64,000 bases of DNA from Blattabacterium cuenoti (GTDB taxonomy: Bacteria > Bacteroidota > Bacteroidia > Flavobacteriales > Blattabacteriaceae): NCBI RefSeq assembly GCF_014251255.1, contig NZ_CP059182.1, positions 186,001 to 250,000 of the forward strand, written 5' to 3'. Positions 57,235 through 64,000 of this stretch are shown here, one piece after another. Numbering within the stretch: the stretch's first letter is position 1; the number at the start of each line of letters is the position of its first letter. The translations under genes were made by a program, and so were the position numbers. The notes under the pieces were generated by a model. It worked only from the letters and a program-made list of their open reading frames with translations, was not told the origin of the DNA and searched no databases.

Positions 57235-57930
57235 GTGTTGTTCTATTATCATTTTTTTTCTATCCCTTTATTTGGTGGTGGGAATATAAAATATAATCAG
57301 AAAAAATATGAAAAAATTTCTTTTAGAAAAAAAAAACAAAAACCATTCTTATACTCAGACAAGAAAAAATCAATCAAAAATCATTTCTTATACTCAGACA
57401 AGAAAAAATCAATCAAAAATCATTTCTTATACTCAGACAAGAAAAAATCAATCAAAAATCATTTCTTATACTCAGACAAGAAAAAATCAATCAAAAATCA
57501 TTATCCAATTTTGGATAACAAACTTCTTTTTAAAAAAAAAACTGATTCTATTATTCAAATAGCTAAAGACTATATAGATACTCCATATAAATATGGAGGG
57601 ACCAACAAAAAAGGAATTGATTGTTCTGCTTTCATAAAAAATATTTTTTATTCTCACAAAATATTATTGCCACGTGTGTCTTACCACCAAGCTAAAAAAG
57701 GTTTTTTCGTCCCAAAAAAGAAAATAGAAAAAGGAGATCTATTATTTTTTGCAACAGGAATCTCTAAAAAAATTAATCATGTGGGAATGGTGATTCATGT
57801 TGAAAATCATAAAAGTATATTTTTTATTCATGCTTCTACATCAAACGGAGTAACAATTTCTCAATTATATCAAAAATATTGGAATAATAAATTTATTACA
57901 GCAAGAAGAATTCTTCAATTGTCAAAATAA
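57235..57930 (+). CDS. NlpC/P60-family cell-wall hydrolase with 13-residue tandem repeat
   Basis: 231 residues if it begins at GTG 57235; no ATG is available. The frame is open upstream from 57175 and reads ILKNIKNSKIVLFV into the hydrophobic VLFYYHFFSIPLF, like a signal peptide, so the real start may be a rarer codon between 57175 and 57235. Residues 38-89 are four perfect copies of FLYSDKKKSIKNH. The C-terminal NlpC/P60 domain has YKYGGTNKKGIDCSAF (catalytic C130), GDLLFFATG and NHVGMVIH (catalytic His). Such enzymes cut gamma-D-Glu-diaminopimelate bonds. The 3' end overlaps aroA by 16 bases. Confidence 0.85.
   Translation: MLFYYHFFSIPLFGGGNIKYNQKKYEKISFRKKKQKPFLYSDKKKSIKNHFLYSDKKKSIKNHFLYSDKKKSIKNHFLYSDKKKSIKNHYPILDNKLLFKKKTDSIIQIAKDYIDTPYKYGGTNKKGIDCSAFIKNIFYSHKILLPRVSYHQAKKGFFVPKKKIEKGDLLFFATGISKKINHVGMVIHVENHKSIFFIHASTSNGVTISQLYQKYWNNKFITARRILQLSK
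57346..57501 (+). repeat. 39-bp tandem repeat, four copies
   Basis: Four back-to-back copies of a 39-bp unit that starts TTCTTATACTCAGACAAG, inside the NlpC/P60 gene. All copies appear identical, and the length is a multiple of three, so copy changes keep the frame. Encodes a Lys/Ser-rich linker between the signal and the catalytic domain. Confidence 0.95.
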
Positions 57931-61566: not shown

Positions 61567-62007
61567 ATGAGTATTTTAAATAAAAAAGCAAGATTTCAAT
61601 ATCAATTTATTGAAGAATATATAGCTGGTATACAATTATTTGGTACTGAAATTAAGTCTATAAGACAAAATAAAGCAAATATCACGGAAAGTTTTTGTCA
61701 AATAAAAAATGGAGAATTATATTCTATTAATATGTATATATCTGAATACAAATTTGGAACAAATTGGAATCATAAAAGCAGAAGAGAAAGAAAATTATTG
61801 TTAAATAAAAAAGAATTAATGAGGATAGAAAAAAAATTAAAAAATCCTGGATTAACTGTAATTCCTACTAAATTATTTATTAATGAGAAGGGATTTGTAA
61901 AATTACAAATAGTTTTAGCAAAAGGAAAAAAAGTATATGATAAACGTGAATCTATACGAAAAAAAGAAATGATTCGTGAATTAATGAAAAAGAAAATAAG
62001 TTATTAA
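61567..62007 (+). CDS. smpB: tmRNA-binding protein SmpB
   Basis: 146 residues. KKARFQYQFIEEYIAGIQLFGTEIKSIRQNKANITESFCQIKNGELYSINMYI and a basic C-terminal tail (KKVYDKRESIRKKEMIREL) match SmpB. Delivers tmRNA to stalled ribosomes. The ssrA RNA gene is not in the window. Divergent from the transketolase genes. Confidence 0.95.
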   Translation: MSILNKKARFQYQFIEEYIAGIQLFGTEIKSIRQNKANITESFCQIKNGELYSINMYISEYKFGTNWNHKSRRERKLLLNKKELMRIEKKLKNPGLTVIPTKLFINEKGFVKLQIVLAKGKKVYDKRESIRKKEMIRELMKKKISY

Positions 62008-62113: not shown

Positions 62114-64000
62114 ATGAAAAACGTCAATTTTTTTATTATTACTTTATTTATTTTTCTTTCATTTTTTTCGTTTTTATTTTCTCAATCTTATACTAAAAAG
62201 TATAAATGGTTTATTAAAATAAGATCGCATGATATAAATTATTATCCTATTCCTAAAAATAGATCTATTTTTACTGCCAAATCAACTTTATTAGATTTTT
62301 TTGAAAAAAAAAACAATACAATTAATCCTTTTTTTTCCGATGTAGAAATCGGATATTTTTTCAATAGAAGAATAGGTTTTTATTTGAATAGTATGTTAGG
62401 AATGGTTGATAATCAGAGATGGAATAAAATGGATTATTTTTTTGTGAAATTCATTCATGGAATGAATATTCATCTATTTTCAAAATATAAAATTGATCCT
62501 TATTTGAGATTAGGAGGAGGATATCATCAATATAATTACGAAAATAGCATGTTAAAATTAAAAACTGACAATTCAAATTTCTATAAGTTAAATCAAAAAC
62601 ATTTTGTTCTGTTTAATGGAGGATTGGGAATAAATTTTTGGATTGTTTCTAATGTGGGGTTAAATGTTCAAAGTGATTACAATTATGTTATTTCATATCT
62701 TTCTAAAGACTATTTGAATTTTTGGGGACATTCTGTGGGATTAACATTTCGTTTTGGAAACAATGATGATCATTATGATGATGATTATATTAAAATTAAA
62801 AAAAATGAAAAGGAAAAACAAAAAGAAAATAAAGAAATTACTGATATAGAAAAAGAAAAAAAAGAAGAAAATACTACTTCTACTACGACACTTTCTTCCC
62901 CTCTTGACCTTAAAGAAAAAACACTTACTAATACTACTTCTACTACGACACTTTCTTCCCCTCTTGACCTTAAAGAAAAAAAAGAAGAAAATACTACTTC
63001 TACTACGACACTTTCTTCCCCTCTTGACCTTAAAGAAAAAAAAGAAGAAAATACTACTTCTACTACGACACTTTCTTCCCCTCTTGACCTTAAAGAAAAA
63101 AAAGAAGAAAATACTACTTCTACTACGACACTTTCTTCCCCTCTTGACCTTAAAGAAAAAAAAGAAGAAAATACTACTTCTACTACGACACTTTCTTCCC
63201 CTCTTGACCTTAAAGAAAAAAAAGAAGAAAATACTACTTCTACTACGACACTTTCTTCCCCTCTTGACCTTAAAGAAAAAAAAGAAGAAAATACTACTTC
63301 TACTACGACACTTTCTTCCCCTCTTGACCTTAAAGAAAAAAAAGAAGAAAATACTACTTCTACTACGACACTTTCTTCCCCTCTTGACCTTAAAGAAAAA
63401 AAAGAAGAAAATACTACTTCTACTACGACACTTTCTTCCCCTCTTGACCTTAAAGAAAAAAAAGAAGAAAATACTACTTCTACTACGACACTTTCTTCCC
63501 CTCTTGACCTTAAAGAAAAAAAAGAAGAAAATACTACTTCTACTACGACACTTTCTTCCCCTCTTGACCTTAAAGAAAAAAAAGAAGAAAATACTACTTC
63601 TACTACGACACTTTCTTCCCCTCTTGACCTTAAAGAAAAAAAAGAAGAAAATACTACTTCTACTACGACACTTTCTTCCCCTCTTGACCTTAAAGAAAAA
63701 AAAGAAGAAAATACTACTTCTACTACGACACTTTCTTCCCCTCTTGACCTTAAAGAAAAAAAAGAAGAAAATACTACTTCTACTACGACACTTTCTTCCC
63801 CTCTTGACCTTAAAGAAAAAAAAGAAGAAAATACTACTTCTACTACGACACTTTCTTCCCCTCTTGACCTTAAAGAAAAAAAAGAAGAAAATACTACTTC
63901 TACTACGACACTTTCTTCCCCTCTTGACCTTAAAGAAAAAAAAGAAGAAAATACTACTTCTACTACGACACTTTCTTCCCCTCTTGACCTTAAAGAAAAA
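62114..64000 (+). CDS. Outer-membrane beta-barrel (OmpA/OprF-like N-domain) protein with expanded 20-residue repeats, 3' end outside window
   Basis: 629 codons are visible with no stop before the window edge. Residues 1-24 look like a signal peptide (NFFIITLFIFLSFFSFLFSQS). Residues about 25-215 alternate like membrane beta strands, e.g. VEIGYFFNRRIGFYLNSMLG, IDPYLRLGGGYHQY, FNGGLGINFWIVSNVGLNV, and end GHSVGLTFRFG, a typical last strand. A charged linker (DDHYDDDYIKIKKNEKEKQ) leads to K250, where a 20-residue unit, KEENTTSTTTLSSPLDLKEK, repeats 19 times. By analogy with Bacteroidetes OmpA-family proteins a C-terminal peptidoglycan-binding domain may follow; this is inference. Confidence 0.8.
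   Translation, partial: MKNVNFFIITLFIFLSFFSFLFSQSYTKKYKWFIKIRSHDINYYPIPKNRSIFTAKSTLLDFFEKKNNTINPFFSDVEIGYFFNRRIGFYLNSMLGMVDNQRWNKMDYFFVKFIHGMNIHLFSKYKIDPYLRLGGGYHQYNYENSMLKLKTDNSNFYKLNQKHFVLFNGGLGINFWIVSNVGLNVQSDYNYVISYLSKDYLNFWGHSVGLTFRFGNNDDHYDDDYIKIKKNEKEKQKENKEITDIEKEKKEENTTSTTTLSSPLDLKEKTLTNTTSTTTLSSPLDLKEKKEENTTSTTTLSSPLDLKEKKEENTTSTTTLSSPLDLKEKKEENTTSTTTLSSPLDLKEKKEENTTSTTTLSSPLDLKEKKEENTTSTTTLSSPLDLKEKKEENTTSTTTLSSPLDLKEKKEENTTSTTTLSSPLDLKEKKEENTTSTTTLSSPLDLKEKKEENTTSTTTLSSPLDLKEKKEENTTSTTTLSSPLDLKEKKEENTTSTTTLSSPLDLKEKKEENTTSTTTLSSPLDLKEKKEENTTSTTTLSSPLDLKEKKEENTTSTTTLSSPLDLKEKKEENTTSTTTLSSPLDLKEKKEENTTSTTTLSSPLDLKEKKEENTTSTTTLSSPLDLKEK
62861..64000 (+). repeat. 60-bp minisatellite, 19 units to the window edge
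   Basis: 1140 bases made of 19 complete 60-bp units. Unit 2 (62921-62980) differs in its first ten bases (encoding TLTN instead of KEEN); the other 18 appear identical. The unit length keeps the reading frame. The array continues past the window. A second frame through the unit is also free of stops. Confidence 0.97.

What the first reader, a model, noticed from the sequence alone, without database searches (positions are those of the whole stretch)
62861..64000. Perfect 60-bp minisatellite expands a surface barrel protein in a streamlined symbiont genome
Nineteen in-frame units (18 identical) add at least 380 Thr/Ser- and Lys/Glu-rich residues after an outer-membrane barrel. The rest of the window has almost no repeats and very tight gene packing, so perfect identity implies recent expansion or gene conversion. 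The unit resembles a mucin-like spacer and could vary in length between symbiont populations, changing how the barrel or a C-terminal wall-binding domain reaches across the periplasm. This is the best candidate here for an undescribed variable system.
Basis: partly seen in the sequence, partly recalled or inferred. Interest (0 to 1): 0.75.

Follow-up and report, generated by a model that had tools for sequence, protein, structure and literature searches.

The report
Expanded linker repeat in symbiont OmpA
A cockroach symbiont's only OmpA-type protein, which fixes the outer membrane to the cell wall, carries 38 near-perfect copies of a 20-residue unit in its flexible linker; comparison across the genus shows that this linker repeatedly grows unrelated repeats, most likely by DNA copying slips in a stretch whose length hardly matters.

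Summary
The array is real and twice as long as the window shows: 38 units of 60 bp, 36 identical, units 1 and 38 sharing a variant end. The 1182-aa protein is a Blattabacterium OmpA-type tether of outer membrane to peptidoglycan: signal, 8-strand barrel, linker, two TSP3-like modules, OmpA domain. It is the genome's only PF00691 match.

The unit is species-specific; the position is not. Across the genus the region after the barrel carries unrelated arrays again and again (22 in 60 kb of gene, 2 in 121 kb of flank). All 22 periods are divisible by three and all follow the barrel. The close relative EUPOLsin has none. Best account: slippage-driven growth of a permissive linker under selection for frame, not a tuned or mucin-like device.

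Unexpected: 11 of 49 genomes lack the OmpA domain (about four losses on my tree). Most then carry Lys/Arg-rich repeat tails, with charge flipped from negative to positive, while peptidoglycan genes remain. Tail function is untested. The count of 38 rests on an assembly whose method is unknown. Lineage-specific repeats in Blochmannia tolA are a published precedent.

The parts
62114..64000 (+). In-window part of the ompA-type gene; the whole ORF is G000:C1:248114-251662 (1182 aa), ending 1662 bases past the window
62114..62185 (+). Signal-peptide-like N-terminus (MKNVNFFIITLFIFLSFFSFLFSQ)
   Evidence: sequence; predicted as a helix
62186..62758 (+). 8-strand OmpA-type outer-membrane beta-barrel
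   Evidence: PF13505 in 9 of 12 aligned barrels, not in this one alone; 8 strands predicted (mean pLDDT 66); Foldseek top hits OmpA, OprF, NspA, OmpW
62759..62869 (+). Low-complexity Lys/Glu/Asp-rich start of the linker; its last 18 bases equal the end of the repeat unit
62870..62929 (+). Repeat unit 1, variant end (NTTSTTTLSSPLDLKEKTLT), same as unit 38
62930..64000 (+). Units 2-19 (last one cut), identical NTTSTTTLSSPLDLKEKKEE; the array goes on to unit 38 outside the window
61567..62007 (+). Upstream neighbour smpB; smpB-like and tatC-like ORFs flank the gene in relatives too and were used here as syntenic markers (names from sequence recognition, no profile search run on them)
57235..57930 (+). 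NlpC/P60 peptidoglycan hydrolase with a second, smaller array (13 aa x 4.6) before the catalytic domain; same kind of event

Best explanation
This is a recently expanded coding minisatellite in the linker (presumed disordered from its composition) of Blattabacterium's only OmpA-domain outer-membrane protein. SHOWN: intact barrel-linker-TSP3-OmpA architecture with an open frame; 38 units, 36 identical; the same linker carries unrelated in-frame arrays in many congeners and none in the close relative EUPOLsin. INFERRED: the first duplication arose by slippage between the AAAGAAAAAA tracts 60 bp apart that flank the unit, and the array grew by further slippage or RecA-dependent unequal exchange (recA is present). 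It persists because the linker's length matters little, while selection keeps the frame open so that the OmpA domain is still made and reaches peptidoglycan. It would work as an entropic tether, with unit number effectively neutral.
For: Full ORF and unit census; PF00691 at aa 1089-1163; match of the C-terminal part to PDB 5WTL, an OmpA family protein with TSP3-like modules, E 2.8e-45; barrel fold. The Asp/Arg pair of the OmpA domain is kept here and, by pattern scan plus inspection of its two exceptions, in all but one (G014) of 38 OmpA-bearing proteins. 22 arrays in 60 kb of gene against 2 in 121 kb of flank, 22/22 with periods divisible by 3, all after the barrel. Unrelated units in G008, G001, G005, G021, G032 and others scattered on the tree. 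EUPOLsin has under 50 linker residues and no array. 18-bp identity between flank and unit end. recA in 49/49. Free-living homologues run from barrel straight into TSP3, so the linker looks genus-specific.
Against: No polymorphism data, so neutrality and recency are inferred. In the part of the genome sampled, arrays are found in envelope proteins (OmpA, NlpC/P60, YajC, PBP1A; PBP1A was chosen deliberately), which could mean selection rather than tolerance. Perfect identity over 2.2 kb could instead reflect continuing homogenisation. The unit is richer in GC (33%) than the genome sample (26%), so it is not just an AT-rich slippage product. The shuffle control does not model codon constraint.
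Confidence: 0.72

Rival explanations
1. The array is selected: a length-variable spacer tunes how the barrel and wall-binding domain reach across the periplasm, or varies between symbiont populations.
For: Frame always kept (22/22); recurrent expansion at the same site in many lineages.
Against: Linker length differs by an order of magnitude between close relatives with no shared unit; the random-coil size of 760 residues (about 27 nm by a textbook scaling formula) already exceeds what a short linker needs; free-living relatives have no linker.
Confidence: 0.13
2. The copy number (or the whole array) is an assembly artefact.
For: 2.3 kb of 60-bp repeats cannot be spanned by short reads; a relative's sequence (G033) has an N gap exactly in its repeat region.
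Against: Short-read assemblers tend to collapse rather than inflate such arrays (general knowledge); the array has a variant unit at both ends and an in-frame exit; arrays recur in independent assemblies.
Confidence: 0.1
3. The unit is a glycosylated, mucin-like or host-facing stalk.
For: Ser/Thr/Pro-rich half of the unit; one N-T-T sequon per unit.
Against: No STT3 match in the genome; the unit lies after the barrel and before an OmpA domain, hence periplasmic by family topology; units in relatives share no motif.
Confidence: 0.04

Closest known systems
OmpA family with TSP3-like repeats (PDB 5WTL, OmpA family protein)
   Same: TSP3 modules followed by an OmpA domain; best solved match to the C-terminal part
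   Different: Homologues from free-living members of the same order have 4-5 TSP3 modules and no linker; here two modules stand behind an inserted linker of about 800 residues
Blochmannia tolA tandem repeats (PMC4389277)
   Same: Insect endosymbiont; periplasm-spanning envelope protein; 80-100 bp in-gene arrays whose length and sequence differ between species
   Different: Other protein, other phylum, 4-7 copies rather than 38
Wolbachia VNTRs and ankyrin-gene repeats (PMC3287509)
   Same: Endosymbiont tandem repeats thought to vary by slippage and concerted evolution
   Different: The two VNTRs are intergenic and the coding ones are folded ankyrin repeats

Membership tests
OmpA family (barrel plus PF00691) | C-terminal OmpA domain above the family cut-off | tested here: met
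   39.6 bits against cut-off 27.2
OmpA family (barrel plus PF00691) | N-terminal 8-strand outer-membrane barrel | tested here: met
   PF13505 in 9 of 12 aligned barrels; predicted 8 strands at moderate confidence; OmpA/OprF structural matches
OmpA family (barrel plus PF00691) | Asp and Arg of the diaminopimelate-binding site | tested here: met
   GCTD...MKRA present; aligned with 5WTL, pattern scan
OmpA family (barrel plus PF00691) | Binding to peptidoglycan in the cell | not testable with these tools
   needs biochemistry
Coding minisatellite / VNTR | Tandem units above chance | tested here: met
Coding minisatellite / VNTR | Copy number varies between individuals or strains of one species | not testable with these tools
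   one genome per species held; between species the arrays differ wholly
Mucin-like glycosylated stalk | Glycosylation machinery and sites | tested here: inconclusive
   No STT3; O-glycosylation genes not searched

The most novel reading that the evidence does not exclude
In Blattabacterium the repeat-prone region after the barrel is an evolutionary route by which the OmpA peptidoglycan-binding domain is replaced: lineages that lost the domain carry long Lys/Arg-rich repeat tails that hold the wall by charge instead, and the 38-unit array shows the same instability before domain loss.
Probability: 0.15. Interest if true: 0.75.

Novelty: new variant of a known kind. Interest (0 to 1): 0.48.

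Why it matters
It gives a genus-wide natural experiment on how little the length and sequence of an outer-membrane/wall tether matter, and on how a shrinking genome that keeps recA can still gain coding DNA. The domain-loss lineages, which keep peptidoglycan genes but carry positively charged repeat tails, make a testable case of a wall anchor being replaced. The arrays may also serve as strain markers.

Tried and rejected
First genome-contig scan with the single barrel found nothing; the alignment query then found EUPOLsin, ALLACbim and AMAZOsp. A PDB sequence search with the barrel alignment gave nothing. A unit search in relatives gave only short low-complexity matches. Two key Blattabacterium genome papers (MBE 2021, GBE 2018) are not held, so the sequencing method is unknown. 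Peptidoglycan loss as the cause of OmpA-domain loss rejected: murD in 49/49, at least two transpeptidase domains in 49/49. A literature search for charge-based outer-membrane tethers gave nothing usable.

Full report
OBSERVATION. The 60-bp array is present: 19 unit starts from 62870 at constant spacing, TRF score 2249, shuffles reach at most 93. The window is G000:C1:186001-250000 of a single 632,233-base contig. Past the window the array runs to 38 units, 36 identical, units 1 and 38 with the same variant end, and the frame continues to a stop after 1182 aa. The fragment scenario is refuted.

ORGANISM. The genus is Blattabacterium. Relatives with chromosome lengths 622,952, 605,745, 587,248, 636,850, 629,165 and 634,449 equal those of BNCIN, BCpu, Bmda, BBge, BGIGA and BBor, and 632,490 equals BPAA, in Table 1 of PMC6039017. 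Which strain the window is from was not determined.

PROTEIN. Signal-like N-terminus; barrel (PF13505 in 9 of 12 aligned barrels, though not in the window's own; eight strands, mean pLDDT 66 from five sequences; OmpA, OprF, NspA and OmpW as structural neighbours); linker with the array; two TSP3-like modules; PF00691. Best solved relative 5WTL. It is the only PF00691 match in this genome.

THE LINKER ACROSS THE GENUS. Homologues in free-living members of the order go from barrel directly into TSP3, so the linker appears to be a Blattabacterium addition. In 47 relatives' loci, TRF arrays of score 100 or more number 22 in 60 kb of gene and 2 in 121 kb of flank, one of the two being the same gene's tail past an N gap; all 22 periods are multiples of three and all start at or after nucleotide 689 of the ORF as cut. 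Units share no obvious sequence: 54 bp in G008, 30 in G001, 21 in G005, 18 in G021, 33 in G032, 75 and 66 in G020, and so on. Three genomes instead amplify the 81-bp TSP3 module (G027, G061, G064). On a RecA-plus-barrel tree, array-bearing genomes form 12 separate clades; the barrel is part of that tree and several nodes are weak.

AGE AND ORIGIN. EUPOLsin, in the same clade as G000 and G008 (support 1.00, inner order 0.41), has no array. Barrel DNA differs by 18.5% and recA by 6.7%; zero differences among 36 units then bound the array at roughly 1.5-4% of the split, if units are not homogenised and mutate at those rates. The 18 bases before unit 1 equal the end of the standard unit, and AAAGAAAAAA occurs on both sides of a single unit, which suggests a microhomology slip as the first step. 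This is inference. RecA is present in 49/49.

DOMAIN LOSS. PF00691 is absent from 11 of 49 genomes. The barrel gene remains in ten; in G017 the smpB-like and tatC-like genes are adjacent and the gene is gone. By a loss-only count on the tree there are four clades, fewer or more if weak nodes are wrong. Seven of the ten keep long tails, six of them strongly basic (G063 with net +156 and RGRGRAPV-type repeats; G009, G010, G020, G028, G036); G033 is interrupted by an N gap. G024, G025 and G065 end soon after the barrel. Net charge per residue has a median of +0.16 against -0.07 in OmpA-bearing linkers, not corrected for relatedness. In the OmpA-bearing set the stretch was cut before the OmpA domain by a pattern that failed in G008 and G060, so those two values include the domain. 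murD is found in 49/49. Transpeptidase matches fall from three to two in six genomes, all OmpA-less. Free-living G041 and G054 already end in a short Lys-rich tail after the OmpA domain, so a basic end is not new in itself.

OTHER ARRAYS. In 180 kb examined of the own genome (window, five arbitrary 20-kb stretches, two targeted loci, with some overlap) the strongest coding arrays besides OmpA are in NlpC/P60, YajC and PBP1A; PBP1A was fetched on purpose, so this is not an unbiased sample.

PRECEDENT. Blochmannia tolA carries species-specific tandem repeats (PMC4389277). Three Blattabacterium papers searched by term mention no OmpA repeat; two main comparative papers are not held, so absence from the literature is not shown.

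VERDICT. Real, intact, probably recent, and ordinary in mechanism; the recurrent use of one linker and the domain-to-tail replacement are the parts worth following.

Noticed in passing
L061:868-3195 (G063): Barrel protein whose OmpA domain is replaced by a very basic Arg/Gly/Pro/Val repeat tail (RGRGRAPV and RRKAPV types), 776 aa, net charge about +156 after the barrel.
   Followed up: partly
L062:6185-7645 (G017): The ompA-type gene is missing: the smpB-like gene is followed directly by the tatC-like gene. In the same genome PBP1A has a C-terminal KPETKSTGK-type repeat tail of about 400 residues (L063:1139-4447).
   Followed up: partly
G009, G010, G017, G020, G025, G028: These six genomes have two instead of three transpeptidase-domain matches; the missing one is that near the mur cluster (probably FtsI). 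All six also lack the OmpA domain.
   Followed up: no
L064:1168-3648 (G063); L065:3142-3236 (own genome): PBP1A in G063 ends in many copies of an NKELKTDDNI unit; the own-genome PBP1A has an EKEN x 8 array near its C-terminus.
   Followed up: partly
G001:C1:260224-261545 and similar places in other relatives: In about half of the relatives the murD match is split over two adjacent ORFs (about 160 and 306 aa), while in the own genome and others it is whole; possible gene fission at one site.
   Followed up: no
L038:10549-10624: A 25-bp x 3 array in the own genome, not inside any ORF of 60 aa or more, downstream of the tatC-like gene.
   Followed up: no
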